A stretch of 64,000 bases of DNA, taken from assembly GCF_000190535.1 (NCBI RefSeq), contig NC_015160.1, positions 1,550,001 through 1,614,000 on the forward strand, written 5' to 3'. The stretch's first letter is position 1, and each line of letters begins with the position of its first letter. The DNA comes from Odoribacter splanchnicus DSM 20712 (GTDB lineage Bacteria > Bacteroidota > Bacteroidia > Bacteroidales > Marinifilaceae). Below the pieces are notes generated by a model. That model was not told the origin of the DNA, did not search any database, and saw nothing but the letters and a program-made list of their open reading frames with translations. This document shows, in pieces, positions 9,324 through 19,122 of this stretch. The translations under genes and the position numbers were made by a program.

Positions 9324-9884
9324 ATGGTAAAATTTTTTAGTATTTGCCTGGTGGTATTACTCCTCTGTAGTTGCCATTCACGCCGGAAAGAAATAGCTCG
9401 AATCGTTGAAGAATGGAAAAATAAAGAAGTTATTTTTCCGGATCCCTTATTGGTAAAAGTACAAGGGCGGGATACCATCCTCCCGGATTTTCAGGAACGC
9501 AAATATAAAATCCTGAATTACATCGACACCAGTGGTTGTACGGAATGCCGGATGAAACTGGCCGAATGGCAATTATTGAAACAGGAAATCGATAGTCTGG
9601 GCTACGATGTCGACATCCTATTCGTTGCCTGGGTCCACAATTACGACGAATTGGAAATCCTGCAACGTGCCAATCGTTGTCAGCTACCCTTCCTATACGA
9701 TCCGCAGGGGGATATGCAAAAAATCAACCAGTTTCCTGCCGAACCGGCTTTCCAAACTTTCCTGCTCGATTCGCTCAACCGGGTCCTGCTTATCGGTAGT
9801 CCGGTCGAAAACGATAAAATCTGGACCCTCTACCAACGTTCCCTCTCCTCTTTAAACTCCGGGATTCCAGGCCGGAATCCCTAG
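9324..9884 (+). CDS. Thioredoxin-fold lipoprotein with a CxxC motif
   Basis: A 186-residue predicted lipoprotein: lipobox LLCSC (Cys16), then a TlpA/redoxin-like fold. The candidate redox site is SGCTECRMK (Cys residues near 72 and 75), preceded by a beta strand (KILNYIDT) and followed by a helix, as in thiol-disulphide proteins. The later segment (FLYDPQGDMQKINQFP) resembles the cis-Pro region of the fold. Likely an envelope thiol reductase or a degenerate relative. It ends the plus-strand lipoprotein run, and its TAG overlaps the stop of the convergent response regulator gene within the palindrome CTAG (9881-9884). Confidence 0.7.
   Translation: MVKFFSICLVVLLLCSCHSRRKEIARIVEEWKNKEVIFPDPLLVKVQGRDTILPDFQERKYKILNYIDTSGCTECRMKLAEWQLLKQEIDSLGYDVDILFVAWVHNYDELEILQRANRCQLPFLYDPQGDMQKINQFPAEPAFQTFLLDSLNRVLLIGSPVENDKIWTLYQRSLSSLNSGIPGRNP
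9861..9881. terminator. Bidirectional hairpin between convergent genes
   Basis: GGGATTCC (9861-9868) and GGAATCCC (9874-9881) form a perfect 8-bp stem with a 5-nt loop. It lies in the last codons of the plus-strand gene and directly beyond the stop of the minus-strand response regulator. There is no long T run, so termination is inferred. Confidence 0.5.
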
Positions 9885-10552
9885 CGGGTCACTTTGAGCA
9901 TATAGCCGTTAAATTTGTCAGTGACAATGGAAGCCGAAGTCAGTGAAATTTTATGCCGTAGAATACTGATGTATTTATTCAACTGCAAATGCAATTTATA
10001 ATCATCCTTATCCCATCCTGCTTTGATCAATAATTCACGGGAAACTGTTTTCTCGCGGTTACGGCAAAGCATGGTAAAGATTTTAAATTCCAATCCCACC
10101 AATTTTTCTTTTCTTTCTCCGATCCATAATTCTCCGGAAAGCAGATCGAAAAATGATTTTTCTCCCAAGCAGATTTTATCACTGCCATTTTTACTTAGAC
10201 AATTATACACCTGTGCTGCCACAACGGCAGGCGCGCAATTTTTCACCAGATAGGTATAGGCGCCACTTTCGAGTCCACGCATCTGGTTGGCTTCATCCCC
10301 TAACGAACTGTAGATCACTATCGGTGTATAGTGGTCGGTAAGCCGGATAATTTGCAGCACCTCAAACCCATTATGACCAGGCATATCGACATCCAGCAAA
10401 ACAACATTCGGTTGCCGCTCCCGGAACAGCTTCAGTGCCTCCGTCCCATTGGTAGCTACGATTACTTCAAATCCCCTCTCTTCGAGTTGCTCCGCAACCT
10501 CCATCACAGTCAGAGGATCATCCTCTGCATATAAAACCTTCAATTTTTCCAT
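9881..10552 (-). CDS. OmpR/PhoB-type response regulator, pair 1
   Basis: A 223-residue cytosolic response regulator. The receiver domain (about 1-120) has the acidic pair E10/D11/D12, phospho-acceptor D54 in VLLDVDMPG, and the conserved Lys in YLVKN. The C-terminal winged helix (about 130-223) has the EFKIFTMLCRN and NKYISILRHKI helices of the OmpR class. Its start overlaps the 3' end of the upstream kinase gene by 13 bp, so the two are translationally coupled. It is paralogous to the regulator at 15388 (same VLDVDMPG, VKN/LKN and LQLNK motifs). It probably binds the direct-repeat operator found upstream of both kinase genes; that link is inference. Confidence 0.9.
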   Translation of the reverse strand: MEKLKVLYAEDDPLTVMEVAEQLEERGFEVIVATNGTEALKLFRERQPNVVLLDVDMPGHNGFEVLQIIRLTDHYTPIVIYSSLGDEANQMRGLESGAYTYLVKNCAPAVVAAQVYNCLSKNGSDKICLGEKSFFDLLSGELWIGERKEKLVGLEFKIFTMLCRNREKTVSRELLIKAGWDKDDYKLHLQLNKYISILRHKISLTSASIVTDKFNGYMLKVTR

Positions 10553-11886
10553 GATACCTGTGGTAAAATAATTAAAAACTTGCTACCGTTTCCTATTTCA
10601 CTCTCTATATGTATTTTCCCTCCGTAAGCACAAACCACTTTATGTACGAAGGTCAACCCCAAACCAAATCCTGTTGTTTTCGTGACTTGCTGATTTCTGA
10701 CACGATAGAATTGTTTAAAAATCTGTTTTTGATCTTTAGGTGCAATTCCCATGCCATTGTCTTCAACAACCAAAATATAATCAGTCCCCTCTTCATAGAA
10801 ATTAATTTTAACGACCGGATGAGCTCCTCCATATTTAATAGCATTGTCCACTAAATTGATAACAATATAATTGAAATATATTTTATCGAGGCAAGGGTAT
10901 CCGAGTCCTTCGGCAATGTGATACTCCACCCGGGCATGTTTTCGGATCATCGTAAACATTTCTGTGATCATCTCCAATTCCAGTTGCAGGTCGATCGGTT
11001 CGCGTTCCACCTCCAAAACCGAAGTTTTTAAAGAGGTCAGCATAGTATCGGTAATATCGGCCATCTTCATCAAACGTGCCTTTATCATCCCTAACTTTAC
11101 TTCATCTGTAGGACATAAAACAGATTCCTTCCGTTTCAACATCCCTCCTATCGCCGAAATCATCGTAGCTAAAGGCTTTTTCAGCTCATGTTCCAAATGG
11201 GCAATTCCCATGGTCTGTACCCGTACACTTCTTAGCGTCATCTTTATCGAATTCCATTGCCAGACTAAACAAATAACGAAACCAATCAGAAAAAGTAATT
11301 CAATCCATAATACTCCTTTAAGGGCTCGGAAAACGAAAGGAAGTTTGAAGGAGGCCGTGATTTGGTGTTTGTAATCGTATCCTAAATTTAGCGGAGAAGT
11401 AGTAATACTATTAGGTTCTACATTAAGCTTATCTGACAATAATAACTTATTTCCATCTAACCCCTTAATTATTAAATAAGGACTTTCAGATATACCTTTT
11501 TCTTGTAATGCTTTATGATATAAAACAGCAATCTTCTGTATATCTAAACATTTGTTCTCAAATAAACAATCATAAACAACTTGCCGGCCTAAACTAATAT
11601 ATTTCTCCATTGAATTAATTTTAAGCCTTTTTTCTGTATTATTGTATTTCCAACAAAATTCATCCTCATTAGCTAAACTATACCCTAATTTCAATTTCTT
11701 AATAGCAAAAGGAGCTTGATTATCCAAAAAAATCTGAATAATATCCTACAATACATAATCAGCAGTTTTTCGAAACTCATCGACTTTCATTTCACGCACT
11801 CTATACATCCATGCCCCTTGTCCTAATAATACACATATTAACAGTACCACAGATAAACGCCCCATTATACGTATTCTACTCTTCAT
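10540..11886 (-). pseudogene. Sensor histidine kinase, pair 1, interrupted by an in-frame TAG
   Basis: From the ATG at 11886 the frame reads MKSRIRIMGRLSV, a first transmembrane helix and VREMKVDEF, matching the start of the paralog at 16063-17388 (HVRELKVKEF). Codon 47 (11748-11746) is TAG. The frame then stays open to 10540, with a periplasmic sensor, second membrane helix (LLFLIGFVICLVW), H-box GIAHLEHELKKP, N-box NLVDNAIKYGG, G1 DNGMGIAP and G2 GFGLGLTF. All catalytic boxes are intact. Only a 395-residue product starting at the TTG at 11727 or a later ATG could form, lacking the first helix and so mis-anchored. This is either a recent nonsense mutation or a sequencing error; the full length would be 448 residues, close to the paralog's 441. 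Confidence 0.82.
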
Positions 11887-11899
11887 ACACCTAATTTAT

Positions 11900-11915
11900 A
11901 GAATATTATAGAATA
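11900..11915. promoter_or_regulatory. Direct-repeat operator, copy 1 (AGAATA-TTAT-AGAATA)
   Basis: Two AGAATA half-sites with a 10-bp repeat length, as expected for an OmpR-class dimer binding one face of DNA. The identical 16-mer occurs at 17406-17421 upstream of the second kinase gene. Here it begins 45 bp upstream of the plus-strand -7 element at 11945 and lies in the 5' leader of the kinase gene. Confidence 0.65.
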
Positions 11916-11925
11916 TATTTTTTTA

Positions 11926-11933
11926 CAAAATTA
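11926..11933 (-). promoter_or_regulatory. -7 element of kinase gene 1 (minus strand)
   Basis: Reads TAATTTTG on the minus strand, a TAnnTTTG match. It begins 19 bp from the start of the opposing plus-strand -7 element, the same geometry as at the second kinase locus (17434-17441 and 17453-17460). Confidence 0.55.
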
Positions 11934-11944
11934 AGAATCTTTCC

Positions 11945-11952
11945 TAAGTTTG
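11945..11952 (+). promoter_or_regulatory. -7 element of the NVEALR-like peptide operon
   Basis: TAAGTTTG, a TAnnTTTG match 35 bp before the ATG at 11980. The -33 position reads TTTA, a weak match, consistent with dependence on an activator bound at 11900-11915. Confidence 0.65.
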
Positions 11953-11979: not shown

Positions 11980-12228
11980 ATGAAGAAAAAAGTAAAATTT
12001 TTAATTGGTGGAATAGTCTTTTCTATTTCTTTATCTATCAATTTCATTATTTCCTCAAATTCTGAAGAAACTATTTTATATTTTGATAATATAGACGCGA
12101 TTGCAGAAAAAGAATCCGGAGACGATTTTACTCCTACCTGTATAAAAGCAGGTTACTTATGTACGGGCATAGACAAGAATGGTAATATGGGAACATTTGA
12201 TGGATTAAGTGCTGAAATGCATAATTAA
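11980..12228 (+). CDS. Small exported NVEALR-like peptide precursor
   Basis: An 82-residue precursor starting at the ATG at 11980 (a TTG at 11950 lies inside the promoter and is not used here). Residues 1-25 form a basic then hydrophobic N-terminal segment (MKKKVKFLIGGIVFSISLS). After it comes NIDAIAEKE (37-45), resembling the NVEALA/NIEALA motif of the Bacteroidales NVEALR family, followed by two cysteines (C54, C61 in CIKAGYLC). Family function is unknown; such peptides commonly neighbour BF3164 lipoproteins. The gene ends 7 bp before the lipoprotein start, so the two are probably coupled. Transcription is divergent from kinase 1 across a shared operator. Confidence 0.72.
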   Translation: MKKKVKFLIGGIVFSISLSINFIISSNSEETILYFDNIDAIAEKESGDDFTPTCIKAGYLCTGIDKNGNMGTFDGLSAEMHN

Positions 12229-12235
12229 AATTAGT

Positions 12236-13306
12236 ATGAAAAAATTACACTATATCATCATCTCTGCCCTCCTGGTTGGAGGTTGTCAATCTGATCCGAG
12301 ATTAGAGAGTGAAGCTTCGCCGTTGGTACGGACGAAAGTTTCAGAGCTTTATTACGCTCAATCGGATAATATCGATTTAGAGGCATTAAACATTGTATCC
12401 CCTTCTAAATTTGTAAAGAAAGGAAACTTATATGCCATCCTGACCCCGAACAGTGCTTATCGTTTTGCCATATACGACAGTGAAAGCGGCAACGTCACCC
12501 GTTTAGTACCGGCAGGAAAAAACGAAGGTGAAGGGATGTACTATATTAGCATGAATCTACAAGGCGATATCGTTTCAGCCTTTGATTTCGGTTCCGGGCG
12601 ATTGGTTGAAATCGACCTAAACGAATATGCCACGCCAGGTTACCGACCTGTTTTCACCAGTCTTGCAGAAGATGGAAAGACTCCATTCGGAGCAATCCGA
12701 CTCGATGAAAGAATTTTATCCACAGGTCTCTACACTGCAGGGCGTTATTGTATTAGTCAGGCCACAGGGTACAACTCCTATAGCGTAAGTTATCCAACCT
12801 GTGCCGACCCCACTCTAACCGACACGTTAAAAAGTATTTTCTATGCCAGTAATATTTTGGCTCTGAATCCTATGCATTCCAAAGTCGCCTGTGCTAATAT
12901 GCAATCCGGTTGTCTGGATATCTGTGAAATTCATGATAACGAACTGAGTCGTATCAATGAAGTCCATATGACTACCCCAAGAGTTAAATTCAACAGACAT
13001 CGTCCGAAAGGTCGTGGCCTGACTCATCCGGTGACTTATTCCCGAAATAACCTGTTCGGATTCTGCGATTTGGCGGTATCGGAGAATTATATTTTCGCTC
13101 TGTATTCAGGAAGAACCCTGAAAGATTATAATCTGGATGTGGACAAAGGAAAAACAATCGTAGTATTCGATTGGAATGGTTCACATGTCCGGACTTATCA
13201 ATTACAGAATGCTTGTTCAGCAATCAGCTATGATGCAGCGGACAATACAATTTATGCGCTGTCACAAGAAGGCAACAAACCTCAAATCATTACGCTGAAT
13301 TTATAG
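12236..13306 (+). CDS. BF3164-type beta-propeller lipoprotein, partner of the peptide
   Basis: A 356-residue lipoprotein from the ATG at 12236 (MKKLHYIIISALLVGGC; lipobox LVGGC, Cys17). A possible earlier start at 12209 would overlap the peptide gene and spoil the signal peptide. The mature protein has the repeating beta pattern of BF3164/TolB-like propellers (for example KTIVVFDWNGSHVRTYQL near the C-terminus). No catalytic motif is seen. It lies 7 bp after the peptide gene in one operon and is followed at 13344 by a nested stem-loop and T run. A frameshifted copy of part of this gene lies at 13467-13650. Confidence 0.8.
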   Translation: MKKLHYIIISALLVGGCQSDPRLESEASPLVRTKVSELYYAQSDNIDLEALNIVSPSKFVKKGNLYAILTPNSAYRFAIYDSESGNVTRLVPAGKNEGEGMYYISMNLQGDIVSAFDFGSGRLVEIDLNEYATPGYRPVFTSLAEDGKTPFGAIRLDERILSTGLYTAGRYCISQATGYNSYSVSYPTCADPTLTDTLKSIFYASNILALNPMHSKVACANMQSGCLDICEIHDNELSRINEVHMTTPRVKFNRHRPKGRGLTHPVTYSRNNLFGFCDLAVSENYIFALYSGRTLKDYNLDVDKGKTIVVFDWNGSHVRTYQLQNACSAISYDAADNTIYALSQEGNKPQIITLNL

Positions 13307-13343: not shown

Positions 13344-13411
13344 GGAGAGAGCAAGTTGAGCAGTTAACTATTTTTTCCTAAGGGCTGCGTTTCTCGTTCC
13401 TCTCCTTTTTT
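13344..13411 (+). terminator. Nested stem-loop, copy A, ending the peptide/lipoprotein operon
   Basis: Outer stem GGAGAG (13344-13349)/CTCTCC (13400-13405), inner stem GCAG (13360-13363)/CTGC (13385-13388), loop with TTTCCTAAGGG, a GTTC box at 13396-13399 directly before the closing strand, then six T. The architecture is shared with copies B, C and D. It works as an intrinsic terminator at minimum. Confidence 0.65.
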
Positions 13412-13466
13412 ATTTCTTCAGGCGAAAGTTATAATTGCCAATTATTTTTATAAATGGTATAGTCCG

Positions 13467-13650
13467 CAGGTCCCTCACGAAGGATTTTATTGCATTAGCC
13501 AGATCACAAAACACAACTTCTATAGTCCGAGTCATTCCACCTGTACCGACTCCACTATAACCGACACGCTAAAAAGTGTTTTATACCAGTAACATTTTGG
13601 CTCTGATCTCTACGTATTCAAGAGTGGTCTGTACCAGATACCACTGTTTA
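13467..13650 (+). pseudogene. Decayed fragment of a BF3164-type lipoprotein gene
   Basis: This stretch is visibly similar to about 12720-12910 inside the intact lipoprotein gene: for example CCGACTCCACTATAACCGAC here versus CCGACCCCACTCTAACCGAC there, and the shared TAACATTTTGGCTCTGA-like segment. Small deletions shift the frame, and neither start nor end of the gene is present. It indicates a past duplication of the peptide/lipoprotein unit followed by loss. Confidence 0.75.
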
Positions 13651-13679
13651 CCAACAAGTTAATGATCATTTTTTAGAAT

Positions 13680-13734
13680 GGTATATTAAAGAATATAGAC
13701 TGTTTTTTAGTTAAAAAGATCTTTTCTACATTTA
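13680..13734 (+). promoter_or_regulatory. Operator copy B and promoter
   Basis: GGTATATTAAAGAATA (13680-13695) aligns with the kinase operators. The -7-like element TACATTTA (13727-13734, last base differing from TAnnTTTG) begins 47 bp after the operator start, the same distance as at two other loci. It would direct transcription into the RNA at 13741. Confidence 0.55.
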
Positions 13735-13740
13735 CAGTGT

Positions 13741-13904
13741 AGAAACAAATAAACAACAGATGAAGAAGAAGTAAACCGTAGCTTATCACTTTAGTTATAT
13801 AAAGTCAGCCGGTTAAAACTAAATACAACGCAAAGGAGAGAGCATAGTAAAAGTGGAAAAAAACATTTCCCAAGCCCACTTTTCTTGTTCCTCTCCTTTT
13901 TTAG
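13741..13904 (+). ncRNA. Candidate small RNA B (or remnant peptide-unit transcript)
   Basis: The predicted transcript begins after the -7 at 13727 and ends at a T run near 13902. It holds a four-codon ORF (ATG at 13760, MKKK then stop) placed as the peptide start is in the intact unit. A 7-bp hairpin (TTTAGTT/AACTAAA) follows, then the nested stem-loop: outer AAAGGAGAG (13832-13840)/CTCTCCTTT (13891-13899), inner AAAAGTGG (13849-13856)/CCACTTTT (13876-13883), loop TTTCCCAAG (13866-13874), and GTTC at 13887-13890. It may be a functional RNA or a deletion derivative of the peptide operon that kept promoter and terminator. Confidence 0.5.
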
Positions 13905-13974
13905 TTCCTTCTTATCAAAATGTTTTAGCAACAAACAACTCACAATAAATAGATTATCGATTATTTTAATTTTT

Positions 13975-14029
13975 GGTATATTAAAGAACATAGACCATTC
14001 TTTAGAAAAAATAATCTTTTCTAAGTTTG
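13975..14029 (+). promoter_or_regulatory. Operator copy C and promoter
   Basis: GGTATATTAAAGAACA (13975-13990) differs from copy B at one base. TAAGTTTG (14022-14029), a consensus -7, begins 47 bp after the operator start. The flanks of B and C (about 100 bp) align well, showing a tandem duplication. Confidence 0.6.
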
Positions 14030-14035
14030 TCATGT

Positions 14036-14212
14036 AAAGACAAAAACAAATAATGAAGCATAGATGATAAATGATGGGGAGAATATCAGGTAGGTGATAA
14101 AACCCTAAGATTAAATAGTTGACACACAGCAACTATTTGGTGGAGAGTGAACCGAAGTTAGATAGAAATCCCAAGTCAATCTTTCTGAAGTTCCTCTTCA
14201 TTTGTTTTTAGA
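14036..14212 (+). ncRNA. Candidate small RNA C
   Basis: The predicted transcript follows the -7 at 14022. A four-codon ORF (ATG at 14053, MKHR then stop) sits at the peptide-start position. Then come a perfect 9-bp hairpin AAATAGTTG (14113-14121)/CAACTATTT (14130-14138) and the nested stem-loop: outer GGAGAG (14142-14147)/CTCTTC (14194-14199, one G-U pair), inner AGAT (14160-14163)/ATCT (14179-14182), loop ATCCCAAG (14168-14175), GTTC at 14190-14193, and a T-rich end. It could also be a leader of the O-antigen-ligase-like gene starting at 14279. Confidence 0.5.
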
Positions 14213-14263
14213 TAACAGAAAGCGATTTTTTAAATTGCAATGGAGTCGGCAAAGTATTAACTC

Positions 14264-14271
14264 TAGTTTTG
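14264..14271 (+). promoter_or_regulatory. Possible -7 element very close to the O-antigen-ligase-like start
   Basis: TAGTTTTG matches TAnnTTTG but lies only 8 bp before the GTG at 14279. If used, the mRNA would be leaderless or the real start would be downstream. Confidence 0.35.
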
Positions 14272-14278
14272 CAATCAA

Positions 14279-15412
14279 GTGATTAACAAAAATTTGGGAC
14301 CAGTACGGCAGCTGGTGTTTTATTTTCATCTCCAAGATTTATGGGGTATTTTGTTTATGGGAAATGCTTTTCTCAACAGTGAGTCTTCTCATTTTTCAGA
14401 TATACAGGCATTTAATCTCATTCTGTTGGGAATTCTTTATCTTACGGTAAGGATATTGTCAGGACTTTCCCAATATATTCAGCTAACGGTAGTCTTAGGG
14501 TTACTTTTCTATTTCTTAGGTGAAGCAATAGCAGGTTTCGGTCAGATCCACGATTTCGTAGCTCCCCGCCATCTTATAGCTCAGATGAGCGGCAGTTTCC
14601 AAAATTCTGAAAGCTATGACGGTCTTTTGGCTTGTCTGCTCCCGTTATCTCTTTCCCTGGCTCTCCGGGCGAACGATGCTCCGAGTAAAAGGTATCTCGT
14701 TGTACCTGTGTTATCGGGATTCTGTACATTTCTGGTGCTCACTCTAATTCCAGCCAGCATGAATCCTTGTTGCTGGTTTATTGCAGGAATAGGATGTTAT
14801 GTTGTAGTTCTCTACCATTTCCGGACTTTCCGTAGCTATAAGTTATTATTACGTTGGTATCCGAAGAGGGTTATTTTCTTTACCCTACTCCTTTTTGTCC
14901 TCCTATTTAAGATCGGAGACTCGATGTACACCTCGATGAAAAATCCGGAAGCAGATTGTACTTTTTTATGGGAACAAAGCGTCGGACTTATCCGTCGATC
15001 TCCGGATCAGGGATATGGCTTAGGAAGTTTCAGCCAACTGGTATCCACTCCTCATCTTTCTGAAAAAGGTTCTATTTCGCCCGATTCTCCTGAAATATGG
15101 GCTATCGACAACCATACTTCCTACTGTTTTAACGAATATTTACGGATCACGGTAGAAAACGGAATACCAGGTCTCCTCTGGTTTCTCTTATTCCTGATCA
15201 CGGCTTTTTACAATGCCCTTCGCTGCGGACAAATCGGTCTTAGCGGTTGTCTGTTAGCTTTCGGTATATTTGCTTATTTTTCGAACATTTTCGATATTAT
15301 TCCTTTGAGTATAATCTTGACAATTATACCGGCACTCTGCGGTAGAAGGCTACCGTTCCTGCAACCTCATTGCAGGAAACGTCCCGCTTATTGTTCGATT
15401 TTAAGCCAATAA
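14279..15412 (+). CDS. O-antigen-ligase/Wzy-like polytopic membrane protein
   Basis: A 377-residue protein with about ten hydrophobic helices. The large loop between helices near residues 225-290 ends in a segment (NHTSYCFNEYLRITVENGIPGLLWFLL) whose YLRITVENGIPGLL part is the typical Wzy_C motif of O-antigen ligase and polymerase families; the loop also has a GYGLGSF turn. The start is GTG at 14279; no ATG lies before about 14342. Members of this superfamily transfer glycans to lipid A or to proteins in the inner membrane. Small versions occur next to NVEALR/BF3164 loci, so a role in modifying the exported peptide or lipoprotein is possible but unproven. The 3' end overlaps the convergent regulator gene by 25 bp. 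Confidence 0.75.
   Translation: MINKNLGPVRQLVFYFHLQDLWGILFMGNAFLNSESSHFSDIQAFNLILLGILYLTVRILSGLSQYIQLTVVLGLLFYFLGEAIAGFGQIHDFVAPRHLIAQMSGSFQNSESYDGLLACLLPLSLSLALRANDAPSKRYLVVPVLSGFCTFLVLTLIPASMNPCCWFIAGIGCYVVVLYHFRTFRSYKLLLRWYPKRVIFFTLLLFVLLFKIGDSMYTSMKNPEADCTFLWEQSVGLIRRSPDQGYGLGSFSQLVSTPHLSEKGSISPDSPEIWAIDNHTSYCFNEYLRITVENGIPGLLWFLLFLITAFYNALRCGQIGLSGCLLAFGIFAYFSNIFDIIPLSIILTIIPALCGRRLPFLQPHCRKRPAYCSILSQ
15356..15378. terminator. Hairpin just beyond response regulator 2
   Basis: TTCCTGCAA (15356-15364) and TTGCAGGAA (15370-15378) form a perfect 9-bp stem with a 5-nt loop. It lies within the 3' end of the plus-strand gene and 10 bp beyond the minus-strand stop, mirroring the hairpin at 9861-9881 between the first regulator and its convergent neighbour. 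Confidence 0.5.
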
Positions 15413-16053
15413 CCCAGGGGCTTTTCGGTAAGGATATATACCGAATGATCACCTTTCAGCAATTTTCGTAAACGGCTGACCATTTTGTTGAGTTGCAGAC
15501 TGCAGTTAGGGGCCTGACTATTCCAACCTGCTTTCAGTAAATCTTCGCGAGCAACCAGGGTATTGCGGTTTTTACATAGGATGGAAAATATCTTATTCTC
15601 CAACATGGTGAGGTGATAGACAACATCCGACACCCTCAGGTTACAAGCCGAAAAATCATATTCGACCTGTTTACTCAAACGGATCACTTCCTCCCCACTT
15701 CGGGCAATGCATCGCTGGATTTGGGCTAACAGCAGCGTCGGACTATAATTTTTCAGTAAGTAAACGTTAGCGCCCCATTCCAAACCTTTGATCTGTTTTT
15801 CTTCATCAATCAGGCAACTATAAATAATGACAGGTGTTTGACTATCCTGAAGCCGTATAAACTGCAAGACCTCGAGTCCGTCTTTTCCAGGCATATCCAC
15901 ATCAAGAACGATCAGATCGGGTTTACAGGCAATAAATTTTTCCAGGGCTTCATTGCCATCGTAGGCGACAATAACTTCATAACCATTATTCTCCAGTTTT
16001 TCCTGAACTTCCATGACTGTCATAGAATCATCTTCTGCATACAAAATTGTCAT
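15388..16053 (-). CDS. OmpR/PhoB-type response regulator, pair 2
   Basis: A 221-residue response regulator with receiver domain (acidic E7/D8/D9, phospho-acceptor D51 in VLDVDMPG, Lys in LLKNY) and a C-terminal winged helix (MLENKIFSILCKN, LQLNKMVSRLRKLL). It is a clear paralog of the regulator at 9881. It lies 9 bp downstream of its kinase gene in one operon. Its 3' end overlaps the O-antigen-ligase-like gene by 25 bp in antisense. It and the first regulator may recognise the same operator, because the same 16-mer lies upstream of both kinase genes. Confidence 0.92.
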   Translation of the reverse strand: MTILYAEDDSMTVMEVQEKLENNGYEVIVAYDGNEALEKFIACKPDLIVLDVDMPGKDGLEVLQFIRLQDSQTPVIIYSCLIDEEKQIKGLEWGANVYLLKNYSPTLLLAQIQRCIARSGEEVIRLSKQVEYDFSACNLRVSDVVYHLTMLENKIFSILCKNRNTLVAREDLLKAGWNSQAPNCSLQLNKMVSRLRKLLKGDHSVYILTEKPLGYWLKIEQ

Positions 16054-16062
16054 TTTCCGTTT

Positions 16063-17388
16063 TTATTGTGGTAATACGACGATAAAGCTGCTGCCTACTC
16101 CAACTTTGCTTTCCACCTGAATATCTCCCCCATAGGTATCCACCACCTTCCGGACAAAGGTCAATCCTAAGCCAAAGCCCGTCGTTCTACGCACGCACCT
16201 AGTATTCATCCGATAAAATGCCCGGAAAATACGCTTCTGTTCTCGTTTTGGAATGCCGATCCCATTATCTCTGACAGCGATTACAAAATTATCATTTTCT
16301 TTCCAACAATCAATGGTTACACAAGGATGATCACCACTATATTTTATAGCATTATCTACAAGGTTGACCACCATATAAAAGAAATAGACCTGATCCAGAC
16401 AGGCCGAAGCAGCCTCGGGAGTGATATGAAAACTCACTTTGGCATAGGGTTTGAGTATCTCGAAAAGTTCGAGTACCATGTCCATTTCTTGTCTGACATT
16501 CAAATCGGCACACTTGAATTGGGGCATGGAATTACCACAAATCATGAGTAAAGTATCTGTCATATCAGCCATTTTGATCAATCTTACCCGCATCATTTTC
16601 AATTTCAGCTGCTCCCGTGCGGTCAGGATATCTTTGTTACTTTCCATCAGATCCTCTACTGCATTCAATAAAATCGCTATCGGTTTTTTCAGCTCATGTT
16701 CTAGATGAGCAGCCCCCATCATCTTTACTTCCGAAGTTTTCCAAAAAGTGTGAATGTAATGCCATTGCCACAATAAACTCAATATAAAACCGAGTAAAAA
16801 AATAACTTCCACCAGCAAGATACCCATAAAAGCGTTGAATACAAAAGGGAGTTCGAAGGAAGCGATCAGGTGATGCTGAAATCCGCATCCCAAATTTGCC
16901 GGCACTGCCTGAATTAACTTATCGGAGCCGGAAACTTTCCCGCAAGTGAGTAAGATATGACCTGTATTCCGGTCTGAGATGGCCCAACAAACCAACGGAG
17001 GCATAGAACGTTCGGTCAAGGCATTCCGCAATAAAGAATCGAGTCGTCTCACATCGAGCTCCCGATTCTCGTACAAATCATCATATACCAAGTGGATTTT
17101 ATCCTCAGAAAACACATAGAAATGATTTACCGGAAAACATTTTTCATCTTTATTTTCTCTTAATCTCCCATTACGGAAAGAAGAATCTCTACCATAAGCC
17201 AAATACTTAAGCCCCTCGTCTGCAATATATTCCTCCGCCACTTCCGAAAGAAGATAACCTGCCCGCATTTTGAATTCTTTAACTTTCAATTCACGCACAT
17301 GATAGATCCAGACTCCTTGTCCTAAGAGAAACAAGAATAACATAAGGAGCGTTAATACATTGATAATCTTTATATTATTATTCACCAC
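16063..17388 (-). CDS. Sensor histidine kinase, pair 2 (intact paralog)
   Basis: A 441-residue inner-membrane kinase, GTG start (17388 or the adjacent GTG at 17385; the ATG at 17390 is in another frame and stops at once). First membrane helix near 10-30, a periplasmic sensor of about 150 residues, second helix near 185-208 (LLVEVIFLLGFILSLLW), then H-box GAAHLEHELKKPI, N-box NLVDNAIKYSG, G1 DNGIGIPK and G2 GFGLGLTF. All catalytic boxes are present. The ligand is unknown; the nearby exported peptide is an attractive but unproven candidate. It is transcribed divergently from a promoter that has the same operator as kinase 1. Confidence 0.92.
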   Translation of the reverse strand: MVNNNIKIINVLTLLMLFLFLLGQGVWIYHVRELKVKEFKMRAGYLLSEVAEEYIADEGLKYLAYGRDSSFRNGRLRENKDEKCFPVNHFYVFSEDKIHLVYDDLYENRELDVRRLDSLLRNALTERSMPPLVCWAISDRNTGHILLTCGKVSGSDKLIQAVPANLGCGFQHHLIASFELPFVFNAFMGILLVEVIFLLGFILSLLWQWHYIHTFWKTSEVKMMGAAHLEHELKKPIAILLNAVEDLMESNKDILTAREQLKLKMMRVRLIKMADMTDTLLMICGNSMPQFKCADLNVRQEMDMVLELFEILKPYAKVSFHITPEAASACLDQVYFFYMVVNLVDNAIKYSGDHPCVTIDCWKENDNFVIAVRDNGIGIPKREQKRIFRAFYRMNTRCVRRTTGFGLGLTFVRKVVDTYGGDIQVESKVGVGSSFIVVLPQ

Positions 17389-17405
17389 ATAAAAGTTTTG
17401 TAAAA

Positions 17406-17460
17406 AGAATATTATAGAATACTTGTTTTAGCACAAAAATATAAATCTTTTATAATTTTG
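17406..17460. promoter_or_regulatory. Operator copy 2 with divergent promoters
   Basis: The 16-mer AGAATATTATAGAATA (17406-17421) is identical to 11900-11915. The minus-strand -7 of kinase 2 reads TATTTTTG (17434-17441); the plus-strand -7 is TAATTTTG (17453-17460), beginning 47 bp after the operator start. The -7 starts are 19 bp apart, as at kinase 1. Confidence 0.65.
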
Positions 17461-17466
17461 CTTTTG

Positions 17467-17544
17467 AAAAAACAAAAAACAATATTCAAAAAAGAGAAAA
17501 AACTGACATTTATAAATAATGATATAATTATATCAGTTTTCTTA
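17467..17544 (+). ncRNA. Candidate short transcript from the operator-2 promoter
   Basis: Downstream of the -7 at 17453 there is no peptide ORF where kinase locus 1 has one. About 75 bp on, AAAACTGA (17499-17506) pairs with TCAGTTTT (17533-17540), followed by a T-rich stretch that resembles a terminator. The result would be a short regulated RNA, or the remains of a lost peptide gene. Confidence 0.4.
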
Positions 17545-17711
17545 TTTCAGTAAAGAAATTAATTAATTTAAAAATAATATATAAAAAATAAATACAAACA
17601 AGTAATATTTACGTGCCTACAGTTCATAAACCGACTTAACCTATTAGAAAAAGAAAAACAACATCAGAATATTTTGTAGAATTACCCATATTTCAAAATA
17701 TAATGAGGTAT
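17545..17711. other. AT-rich intergenic stretch
   Basis: No coding capacity or clear structure is seen. A TATAAT at 17699-17704 precedes the structured region that follows, but the spacing to any -35 or -33 element is poor. Confidence 0.4.
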
Positions 17712-17850
17712 TGAAATAGCCAGACCGGCAAGAACAAACGCTATATTTGAGTTACCTAGGATTGCCGACCTCACTATAAAGACGTTGCAAAGCGTTCTTG
17801 TTTATTCCGTAACGAAAAAAGCAAGCATTATCGCTCTTGCCCGGTCTGAG
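17712..17850 (+). ncRNA. Long hairpin-forming region, possibly a structured (6S-like) RNA
   Basis: CAGACCG-GCAAGA (17721-17733) pairs with TCTTGC-C-CGGTCTG (17835-17848), one bulged base. Inside, AACGCT (17737-17742) pairs with AGCGTT (17791-17796). A local hairpin GCAAG (17821-17825)/CTTGC (17836-17840) competes with the closing stem. A long rod with a large internal bubble and an alternative 3' hairpin recalls 6S RNA, but I recognise no conserved sequence; strand and identity are inference. Confidence 0.4.
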
Positions 17851-17897
17851 CTAATTTGAAAGTTTTATATAATGAATCAAGCAATAGAAAGCATAAC

Positions 17898-17993
17898 TAG
17901 ATGATCACTGCCGACTCATCTACATGGGAGGAAAAGAAACCAAGGAAAGTATTCCCAAGTTAATCCTTACAGGTTCTACCTCCCTTTCTTTTT
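17898..17993 (+). ncRNA. Nested stem-loop RNA element, copy D
   Basis: Hairpin TAGATGA (17898-17904)/TCATCTA (17916-17922), then outer stem GGGAGG (17926-17931)/CCTCCC (17979-17984), inner stem AAGGA (17942-17946)/TCCTT (17964-17968), loop TTCCCAAG (17952-17959), GTTC at 17973-17976 and a T-rich end. Both stems differ in sequence from copies A-C yet remain paired. The 250 bp from here to the signal peptidase start hold no recognisable gene. Confidence 0.5.
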
Positions 17994-18243
17994 GTCACTA
18001 TTTCAACATATTCTTCACTTCTCCCTTCTGACATACACAGGCATACCGACCAGTTCTTTTTCATATTTTTCCTTTAAACTCTCTTCAAATTTAAACATTT
18101 TTTGCAAGCGGTCCCCTCAGGCTGTAACTCACGGGGAAGGGAGAAAGCGGGCTATTGTTAAAAAAATAGTGGAAAGTGATATATTCTTAAAATTATCGTT
18201 AACTTCAACCGTTCAATAAAACGGTGTTTCCGATCAGATTATA

Positions 18244-19122
18244 ATGAAAAAAATTATCAAAAATATACTTCAATATATTGCAGTCATCGTTATTTCGTTA
18301 GTGATAGCAATCTTGTTACGACTGTTTGTCGTCGATTTTTATTCCATCCCCAGCGACTCCATGCAACCGACGATAGAACCGGGAGATTTTATTATGGTAA
18401 ATAAATTGAGTTTCGGTGCGCGGATGTATAAAAATTTCGATTTTCTGAAAGACCGAACAGAACCGGAAACTTACCGGATCAAAGGCTTCTCGAAAATTCA
18501 TAATGGGGATGTGCTGGTTTTTAATTTTCCCTATTCAGGAGGATGGGACAGGATCAGTATGCACCTTTCCCGTTTCTATGTCAAACGCTGCATCGGTATA
18601 CCGGGCGATAGTCTGCAAATCAAAGGGGGATTTTATGAAATCAACGGTAGGCGGGGAATAGGCAATCTGAACGATCAGGAGATGCTTTCCAATTATCGGG
18701 GTGAATATCCGCAGGGAATATACAACACTTATCCATTCGACTACCGGCTAGGCTGGAACTTTATAAATTTCGGTCCCCTTTATCTGCCCCGTAAAGGGGA
18801 TACCTTACCGATCGATACTTCAGCTGTCCAGATCTATTATAAAATGATTAAATACGAAAGTGGGCTGAACTTGCAAGAGCGAGAAGGTCAGGTGTGGTGT
18901 GGCGATTCACTGGTCGAGCGTTATACTTTCCGTACCAACTGGTATTTTATGGGCGGTGACAATATGTGGAATTCTCAGGATTCGCGCTATCTGGGGCCTA
19001 TCCCCGAAGAATTTATCATCGGTAAAGCGACCTTGATTCTGACAGCCAAAGATCCCGAAACGAAAGCCTATCGCTGGAGGCGTTTTTTTACCCGGATCAG
19101 GAAAGAGGTAAAGAACAGATAG
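18244..19122 (+). CDS. lepB: Signal peptidase I
   Basis: A 292-residue inner-membrane serine protease (S26A) that cleaves Sec and Tat signal peptides on the periplasmic face. One N-terminal membrane helix (about 9-30), catalytic Ser39 in IPSDSMQPTI, catalytic Lys114 in FYVKRCIGIPGD, and the C-terminal box GGDNMWNSQDSRYLGPI. The insert between the Lys and the GDN box is long, as in other Bacteroidetes enzymes. It follows the structured RNA region and ends in a strong hairpin terminator. Its place beside an exported-peptide locus is suggestive, but it could simply be a housekeeping gene. Confidence 0.93.
   Translation: MKKIIKNILQYIAVIVISLVIAILLRLFVVDFYSIPSDSMQPTIEPGDFIMVNKLSFGARMYKNFDFLKDRTEPETYRIKGFSKIHNGDVLVFNFPYSGGWDRISMHLSRFYVKRCIGIPGDSLQIKGGFYEINGRRGIGNLNDQEMLSNYRGEYPQGIYNTYPFDYRLGWNFINFGPLYLPRKGDTLPIDTSAVQIYYKMIKYESGLNLQEREGQVWCGDSLVERYTFRTNWYFMGGDNMWNSQDSRYLGPIPEEFIIGKATLILTAKDPETKAYRWRRFFTRIRKEVKNR

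What the first reader, a model, noticed from the sequence alone, without database searches (positions are those of the whole stretch)
13344..17993. Four-copy structured RNA element with covarying stems and a conserved loop
Copies at 13344, 13832, 14142 and 17926 share an outer stem, an inner stem, a loop close to TTCCCAAG and a GTTC box just before the closing strand, then a T run. Stem sequences change together: GGAGAG/CTCTCC versus GGGAGG/CCTCCC outside, and four unrelated inner stems that all pair. This points to selection on structure plus loop sequence, more than a plain terminator needs. Copies B, C and D are preceded by a separate hairpin of unrelated sequence.
Basis: partly seen in the sequence, partly recalled or inferred. 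Interest (0 to 1): 0.8.

Follow-up and report, generated by a model that had tools for sequence, protein, structure and literature searches.

The report
Conserved-loop RNA hairpins beside sensor-kinase operon
A gut bacterium carries four related RNA hairpins, one at the end of a membrane-protein operon and three on what look like separate small RNAs with the same kind of promoter; related species change the stems but keep the loop, so the loop probably binds something.

Summary
In five aligned copies from three genomes of one genus, 10 of 13 base pairs changed on both sides; 0 of 500 shuffles reach this. CCCAAG is in the loop of 7 of the 8 loop-bearing copies I found; copy A has CCTAAG. "GTTC" is not a conserved box: it is the 3' arm of a second helix (GAAC/GTTC here, GAGC/GCTC in the G046 orthologue).

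Copy A is the terminator of an NVEALA–TolB-like operon. C and D lie behind the promoter block of that operon, a pattern with 6 matches in the 4.39-Mb genome; B has the block with a weaker -7 box. C and D have syntenic orthologues in one sister species. Two further species carry the loop just after their TolB-like gene. Nothing reaches Rfam's gathering score, and convincing copies were found only at this locus in this genus.

Best reading: a genus-specific small-RNA and 3'-UTR family, probably co-regulated with the adjacent two-component systems, whose terminator loop is the working part. The partner is unproven; pairing with the neighbouring histidine-kinase mRNA is a lead with mixed evidence. 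Mobile repeats fit poorly. Duplicated terminators remain a serious rival. No transcript has been shown.

The parts
13344..13405 (+). copy A: terminator hairpin 38 bases after the TolB-like gene; loop TTCCTAAG
   Evidence: follows the gene 12239-13306
13835..13896 (+). copy B: hairpin, loop TTTCCCAAG, T run
   Evidence: (R1 E 6.6e-4)
14142..14199 (+). copy C: hairpin, loop AATCCCAAGTCA; syntenic orthologue in G046
   Evidence: C was a training copy of R1
17926..17984 (+). copy D: hairpin, loop TATTCCCAAGTTAA; syntenic orthologue in G046
   Evidence: D was a training copy of R1
13680..13734 (+). promoter-like block of unit B: GGTATATTAAAGAATAT ... -7 TACATTTA (weak)
13979..14029 (+). promoter-like block of unit C: TATTAAAGAACAT ... 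-7 TAAGTTTG
17410..17460 (+). promoter-like block of unit D, divergent from kinase 2
11904..11952 (+). same promoter block in front of the NVEALA gene
13741..13907 (+). inferred small RNA B, ~165 nt (contains ATG AAG AAG AAG TAA at 13760)
   Evidence: inference from -7 box and terminator; fold z -4.62
14036..14212 (+). inferred small RNA C, ~175 nt (ATG AAG CAT AGA TGA at 14053; hairpin with ACACACA loop before copy C)
17467..17995 (+). inferred RNA D, up to ~525 nt (ATG ATA TAA at 17519; internal TTGCCGACCTCACTATA)
11980..12228 (+). NVEALA-type small exported protein gene
   Evidence: Pfam PF14055 E 2.2e-4, 21.3 bits, below its gathering score of 27
12239..13306 (+). TolB-like six-bladed propeller gene
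   Evidence: Pfam PF15869 E 1.9e-12
13463..13632 (+). decayed copy of part of the TolB-like gene between A and B
   Evidence: two stretches at 78% identity; local alignment z 55
9881..11886 (-). response regulator 1 and histidine kinase 1 (kinase 1 has an in-frame stop near its N-terminus)
15388..17388 (-). response regulator 2 and histidine kinase 2

Best explanation
A genus-restricted family of structured RNA 3' ends. A two-helix intrinsic terminator presents a loop of about 9-19 nt carrying CCCAAG. It is found (i) at the 3' end of the NVEALA-TolB mRNA and (ii) at the 3' end of three short transcription units (B, C, D) that have no evident protein-coding content but carry the promoter block of that operon. 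Most likely the adjacent two-component response regulators switch on the operon and the small RNAs together, and the exposed pyrimidine-rich loop is the working part, acting as a base-pairing seed in the way the terminator loop of Helicobacter RepG does. Shown: structure with covariation, loop conservation, shared promoter block, synteny of two units with a sister species. Inferred: transcription, control by these regulators, and that the loop acts by base pairing.
For: Covariation: A11 (5 of the 9 copies) has 93.8% of cells paired and 10 of 13 pairs with double-sided change, 0 of 500 shuffles reaching either; slid controls fall to 55-66%. The outer stem of 9 copies is paired in 54 of 54 cells with double changes at 5 of 6 pairs; 2 of 10000 whole-arm shuffles reach this (register set by eye). 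Loop: CCCAAG in 7 of 8 loop-bearing copies from 4 genomes, against changing stems. Synteny: in G046 the C orthologue lies between TolB and the O-antigen-ligase gene and the D orthologue between kinase 2 and lepB. In G044 and G043 the loop follows the TolB-like gene. Promoter block: 6 matches in the whole own genome, 0 for the reversed pattern; three are NVEALA, C and D here, one is the paralogous NVEALA operon, one precedes a lipoprotein-like gene. The -7 TAnnTTTG is the published sigma-AB box (PMC7366714, passages). Unit C against its G046 orthologue: 40 of 51 letters identical in the promoter block, 65 of 94 in hairpin plus element.
Against: No transcript data. Inferred RNA C as a whole is only 66% identical to its orthologue (101 of 153 letters), its 5' part 61%, so constraint on the whole RNA is not shown. 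The paralogous NVEALA-TolB operon of the same genome has a homologous terminator without the loop motif, the TolB terminator of G046 lacks it too, and copy A has CCTAAG. R2 does not find copy A or the G043 copy; these rest on position and inspection (13.2 bits with R1 for G043). B lacks a good -7 box. In the genus the promoter pattern has 15 matches against 6 for the reversed control. On A11 the number of further pair types is reached by 40 of 500 shuffles. No target was established. Only 8 genomes of the genus were held and 4 carry the loop.
Confidence: 0.5

Rival explanations
1. Duplicated terminators only. The locus arose by tandem duplication of NVEALA-TolB units, most of which decayed. 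B, C and D are leftover promoter-plus-terminator scraps, and the loop is shared by descent.
For: A decayed TolB piece lies between A and B. Promoter, ATG start and terminator are all operon parts. The paralogous operon terminator GGAGAGCGAAC..GTTCCTCTCT is homologous without the loop. The middle of RNA C is poorly conserved.
Against: Double-sided stem changes with the loop kept. Units C and D persist in a sister species at the same places. A neutral loop should drift as the inner stems did. The body of C shows no significant similarity to the operon.
Confidence: 0.25
2. Antisense feedback on the sensor kinase. The loop (CCCAAGUCAA) pairs with the codons of a conserved Leu-Gly motif in the neighbouring histidine-kinase mRNA, so the operon 3' UTR and the small RNAs dampen their own sensor.
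For: The site is the best window of the kinase gene in 4 of 22 same-genome loop/kinase pairs: C and D with kinase 2 (own genome), D-orthologue with kinase 1 (G046), A2 with kinase 1 (G044). For the last two it is the best non-self hit in the 18-kb and 16-kb locus, both strands. In the own genome kinase 1 reads UUUAGGA and copy A reads UCCUAAG, a matching exchange.
Against: The other 18 same-genome pairs have 7 to 291 better windows in the gene, and cross-genome pairs reach first place in 5 of 50. The A/kinase-1 exchange scores only -6.7 kcal/mol with 38 better windows, and G043 breaks it. Six shuffles of each locus give on average 0.7 and 1.3 equally good windows. Found post hoc; the loops are homologous, so hits are not independent.
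Confidence: 0.12
3. Protein-binding element. The loop is the recognition site of an RNA-binding protein; stand-alone copies titrate it from the operon mRNA.
For: The same loop sits in the same orientation on mRNA 3' UTR and small RNAs, as expected for a shared partner. Bacteroides has a global RNA-binding protein, RbpB, that prefers single-stranded regions (PMC11697453, passages).
Against: The protein is unidentified. The leading RbpB motif in that paper is a 41-nt FopS sequence; I did not compare it letter by letter.
Confidence: 0.2
4. Leader attenuators: C in front of the O-antigen-ligase gene and D in front of lepB act as conditional terminators of those genes.
For: Order and strand fit. 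In G044 the D-type RNA ends about 25 bases before the lepB start.
Against: The ligase gene has what looks like its own -7 box just before its GTG start, kept in G046 (seen by eye). A lies at a gene's 3' end. In the own genome about 260 bases separate D from lepB.
Confidence: 0.1
5. Mobile hairpin repeat (REP or MITE type).
For: Four similar hairpins in 4.6 kb.
Against: No further convincing copies in the genome; syntenic positions in other species; followed by a T run in terminator position in the four window copies.
Confidence: 0.02

Closest known systems
RepG small RNA of Helicobacter pylori (PMC8295292, start of abstract and five passages seen)
   Same: A pyrimidine-rich intrinsic-terminator loop is the functional part; encoded beside a response-regulator gene.
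   Different: No demonstrated target here. The loop is UUCCCAAG rather than a C/U run pairing a G repeat. Multi-copy, and also present on an mRNA 3' end. No homology tested or claimed.
FopS / GibS small RNAs of Bacteroides thetaiotaomicron (PMC11697453 and PMC7366714, passages seen)
   Same: FopS: multi-copy small-RNA family in Bacteroidota with sigma-AB promoters and an intrinsic terminator.
   Different: FopS are about 65-70 nt with the conserved seed in the single-stranded 5' part; here the conserved part is in the terminator loop. No Rfam match at gathering score.
3'-UTR-derived small RNAs
   Same: Copy A and the G044 and G043 copies sit at an mRNA 3' end.
   Different: B, C and D have their own promoter-like blocks; no processing shown.
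Ordinary intrinsic terminators
   Same: Stem followed by a T run at the end of an operon.
   Different: Two helices with a long conserved loop, kept under double-sided stem changes, also on units without a coding gene.

Membership tests
Intrinsic terminator | GC-rich stem followed by a T run at a transcript end | tested here: met
   stem and T run of A-D; that transcripts end there is not shown. The tool's simple terminator scan does not list them; its loop limit is 8 bases.
Intrinsic terminator | loop sequence free to vary | tested here: not met
   CCCAAG in 7 of 8 loop-bearing copies from 4 genomes, but absent from the paralogous operon terminator and the G046 TolB terminator
Intergenic small RNA of Bacteroidota | own promoter and terminator, no coding content | tested here: inconclusive
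   block and -7 box found for C and D, weak for B; start-to-stop frames of 2-5 codons at the NVEALA start position; no transcript data
FopS/GibS | sequence/structure family membership (Rfam) | tested here: not met
   no Rfam match at gathering score in the window or in L042/L043. The FopS paper says its structure was deposited in Rfam; I did not check that it is in this release.
RepG-like action | terminator loop base-pairs with an mRNA | tested here: inconclusive
   kinase-mRNA site in first place in 4 of 22 same-genome pairs; chance level not excluded
Mobile hairpin repeat | dispersed copies at non-orthologous places | tested here: not met

The most novel reading that the evidence does not exclude
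A two-component system whose output operon carries in its own 3' UTR, and on co-regulated stand-alone small RNAs born from decayed copies of that operon, a terminator loop antisense to the coding sequence of its sensor kinases. This would be an RNA feedback and cross-talk circuit between paralogous sensors, with loop and kinase codons co-evolving (UCCUAAG with UUUAGGA, UCCCAAG with UUUGGGA).
Probability: 0.1. Interest if true: 0.75.

Novelty: new member of a known kind. Interest (0 to 1): 0.43.

Why it matters
As far as I recall, few small RNAs are described in Bacteroidota outside Bacteroides, and I know of no established role for NVEALA / TolB-like / kinase loci; my one full-text search for 'NVEALA' returned no paper. 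This locus gives a compact case in which operon decay may have left promoter-plus-terminator units that then persisted as conserved RNAs. It links a small RNA family to a specific sensor pair in an experimentally testable way.

Tried and rejected
Rfam: nothing at gathering score. With a loose threshold, L20_leader at 22.7 bits against a gathering score of 58.7, judged chance.

Alignments: A1-A3 misregister the 5' arms; A4 and A5 were built with coordinates off by one and dropped; A6 was used for R1. A7 and A10 contain false matches and were not used for counts.

R1 over 56 family genomes gives many hits at E 0.004-10 outside the genus. tblastn of the 30 loci L012-L041 shows operon neighbours only for L012 and L013 (own genome and G046), so the others were treated as background. 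R2 over 295 order genomes: 7 hits at E 0.008-0.035 outside the genus, against nominally ~15 expected at E<=0.05 per genome; none of the 7 has a neighbouring operon gene by tblastn, and three look like GA-rich repeats.

TTGCCGAC(C/T)TCACTATA in unit D with GGAGTCGGCAA upstream of the ligase gene: considered as antisense. The partner lies upstream of a putative -7 box, and the 12-mer TGRAGTCGGCAA occurs 15 times in 7 of 8 genus genomes. Left unexplained. My idea that it is a TolB remnant was tested and not supported: z -1.0 to 3.7, and the best local alignments of the own-genome D region above z 2 lie in its 5' part, not there.

Pairing of the loop with the start of the ligase gene (TTTGGGA near 14293) is not conserved in G046.

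Recounted over letters it is 66% for the inferred RNA.
Full report
Setting. The window lies at G000:C1:1550001-1614000 of a single-contig genome of 4,392,288 bases. The length fits my recollection of Odoribacter splanchnicus; no tool names it. Around the finding lie two histidine-kinase/response-regulator pairs on the minus strand (9881-11886 and 15388-17388), an NVEALA-type small exported protein (11980-12228; Pfam match below its gathering score), a TolB-like propeller protein (12239-13306), an O-antigen-ligase-like gene (14279-15412; Wzy_C at 27.3 bits, gathering 31.7) and, recognised from its sequence without a family search, lepB (18244-19122).

Observation. The four hairpins exist as described. 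Motifs alone are not rare: TTCCCAAG occurs 5 times in the window and the spaced CCCAAG/GTTC pattern 4 times, each reached by 23 of 100 shuffles. Unit C (175 nt), unit B (168 nt) and the D region (366 nt) fold better than all their shuffles (200, 200 and 100), z -3.55, -4.62 and -3.41.

Anatomy. Copy A starts 38 bases after the TolB-like stop codon and is that operon's terminator by position. Copies B and C each follow a ~90-nt block repeated at 13659-13749 and 13954-14044 (73% identity): a box GGTATATTAAAGAAyAT, about 30 bases, then a -7 element (TAAGTTTG in C, TACATTTA in B). The published Bacteroides -7 consensus is TAnnTTTG (PMC7366714, passages). The same block precedes the NVEALA gene (11904-11952) and unit D (17410-17460), where it is divergent from kinase 2 just as the NVEALA promoter is divergent from kinase 1. 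A pattern for box plus -7 has 6 matches in the whole genome and 0 for the reversed control: NVEALA, C and D here, the paralogous NVEALA operon at 640 kb, and two others, one of which precedes a gene that looks like a lipoprotein. Across the 8 genus genomes it has 15 matches in 6 genomes against 6 for the reversed control, so it is specific in the own genome and less so elsewhere. Each of B, C and D has an ATG followed by a stop within 2 to 5 codons after the block (B MKKK, C MKHR, D MI; read), which resembles the MKKK start of NVEALA. At the DNA level the 5' part of B aligns with the NVEALA start at z 4.1 (one of 100 shuffles or more scores as high) and that of D at z 2.8 and 3.7 with two operons; C does not (z -0.4 to 1.0). 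So descent from the operon is likely for the promoter and terminator and only suggested for the middle. The spacer between A and B does contain a decayed piece of the TolB-like gene (z 55).

Relatives. Blastn of 13640-14215 over 56 genomes of the family matched in 8, own included. By inspection G046 carries a whole C-like unit; G044, G043 and G048 carry the promoter block; G047 has a short match in a similar sequence; the short matches in G032 and G035 were not confirmed. R1, built from C, D and the G046 orthologue of C, found in G046 a second copy not used in training, 3.6 kb away, between kinase 2 and lepB, which is where D lies here (E 6e-4, 1.4e-5). It also pointed, weakly, to copies directly after the TolB-like gene in G044 (E 2.16, 0.049) and G043 (13.2 bits, E 0.47; not listed). 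R2, trained on five copies including the G044 one, finds nothing else convincing in the own genome, in the genus (8 genomes) or in 295 genomes drawn from the order, and it does not recover copy A or the G043 copy, which rest on position and inspection. So I count the family at this locus in 4 of 8 genomes of the genus. The TolB-like loci of G045, both of G048 and a second one of G046 appear to run on into another reading frame without such a hairpin directly after the gene (by eye). The second NVEALA-TolB operon of the own genome ends in a homologous hairpin with GAAC/GTTC but loop TTGTCTGCCAGACTCTC, and the TolB terminator of G046 lacks the motif.

Selection. On alignment A11 (C, D, their two G046 orthologues, the G044 copy: 5 of 9; A, B, the G043 copy and the paralogue were left out because the model aligns them poorly) 93.8% of cells pair and 10 of 13 pairs show changes on both sides; 0 of 500 shuffles reach either, the covariation score is likewise unreached, but the number of further pair types is reached by 40 of 500. 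Sliding the partner by one to three columns drops pairing to 55-66%. This alignment was fitted to the structure, which favours it. A hand-registered count of the outer six pairs over all 9 copies gives 54 of 54 cells paired, with 2 of 10000 arm shuffles as high. The loop core CCCAAG is unchanged in 7 of the 8 loop-bearing copies (B, C, D, their G046 relatives, the G044 and G043 copies); A has CCTAAG. Against its G046 orthologue, unit C keeps 40 of 51 letters in the promoter block, 65 of 94 in hairpin plus element and 36 of 59 in the 5' part, 101 of 153 (66%) over the inferred RNA; TolB is 72% and the ligase 54% identical in protein. Constraint is therefore clear for promoter and element, not for the whole RNA.

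Mechanism. The most economical account is a set of co-regulated RNA 3' ends with a working loop. A terminator loop used as a seed has a precedent in RepG of Helicobacter (PMC8295292, start of abstract and five passages). I looked for a partner in the loci held. In two genomes the best non-self duplex for one loop lies in the kinase-1 gene, at codons of a conserved Leu-Gly motif. Tested as a fixed site, it is the best window of its gene for 4 of 22 same-genome loop/kinase pairs; the other 18 have 7 to 291 better windows, and 5 of 50 cross-genome pairs also reach first place. In the own genome kinase 1 reads UUUAGGA and copy A UCCUAAG, a tempting exchange, but its duplex is weak (-6.7 kcal/mol) and G043 contradicts it. 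Dinucleotide-shuffled loci (6 each) give on average 0.7 and 1.3 equally good windows. I hold this as a lead only. A protein partner shared by the mRNA end and the small RNAs is about as likely; attenuation of the downstream genes is less so.

Known or new. Rfam release 15 has no match at gathering score in the window or in two sister loci. FopS and GibS differ in length or in where the conserved part lies (PMC11697453, passages). A search for 'NVEALA' in the paper library gave 0 papers. 'Odoribacter splanchnicus' with 'small RNA' gave 15 papers; none of the 10 listed is about this bacterium's small RNAs by title and start of abstract. I file it as a new family of a known kind: conserved small RNAs / structured 3' ends.

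Noticed in passing
window 10540-11886 (-): Histidine kinase 1 has an in-frame TAG some 47 codons after its likely start (ATG near 11886), so the listed ORF starts late at 11727; the G046 orthologue has no stop there.
   Followed up: partly
window 17763 and 17909; 14243-14253; L043 15106: TGCCGAC within TTGCCGAC(C/T)TCACTATA or a close form is kept in the unit-D region of three genomes, and its near-complement GGAGTCGGCAA lies upstream of the O-antigen-ligase-like gene in two genomes. Antisense pair, DNA site or chance is undecided.
   Followed up: partly
window 14266-14279: The O-antigen-ligase-like gene has a -7-like box (TAGTTTTG) only a few bases before its GTG start, both kept in G046, suggesting a leaderless mRNA.
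   Followed up: no
window 17722-17853; L043 15060-15200: The D region contains a long-range stem (CAGACCGGCAAGA ... TCTTGCCCGGTCTG here; ATCAGACC ... GGTCTGAT followed by a T run in G044) outside the finding.
   Followed up: partly
G000:C1:2573285-2573335 (-) (locus L122): The same promoter box precedes a lipoprotein-like gene, possibly a further member of the regulon.
   Followed up: partly
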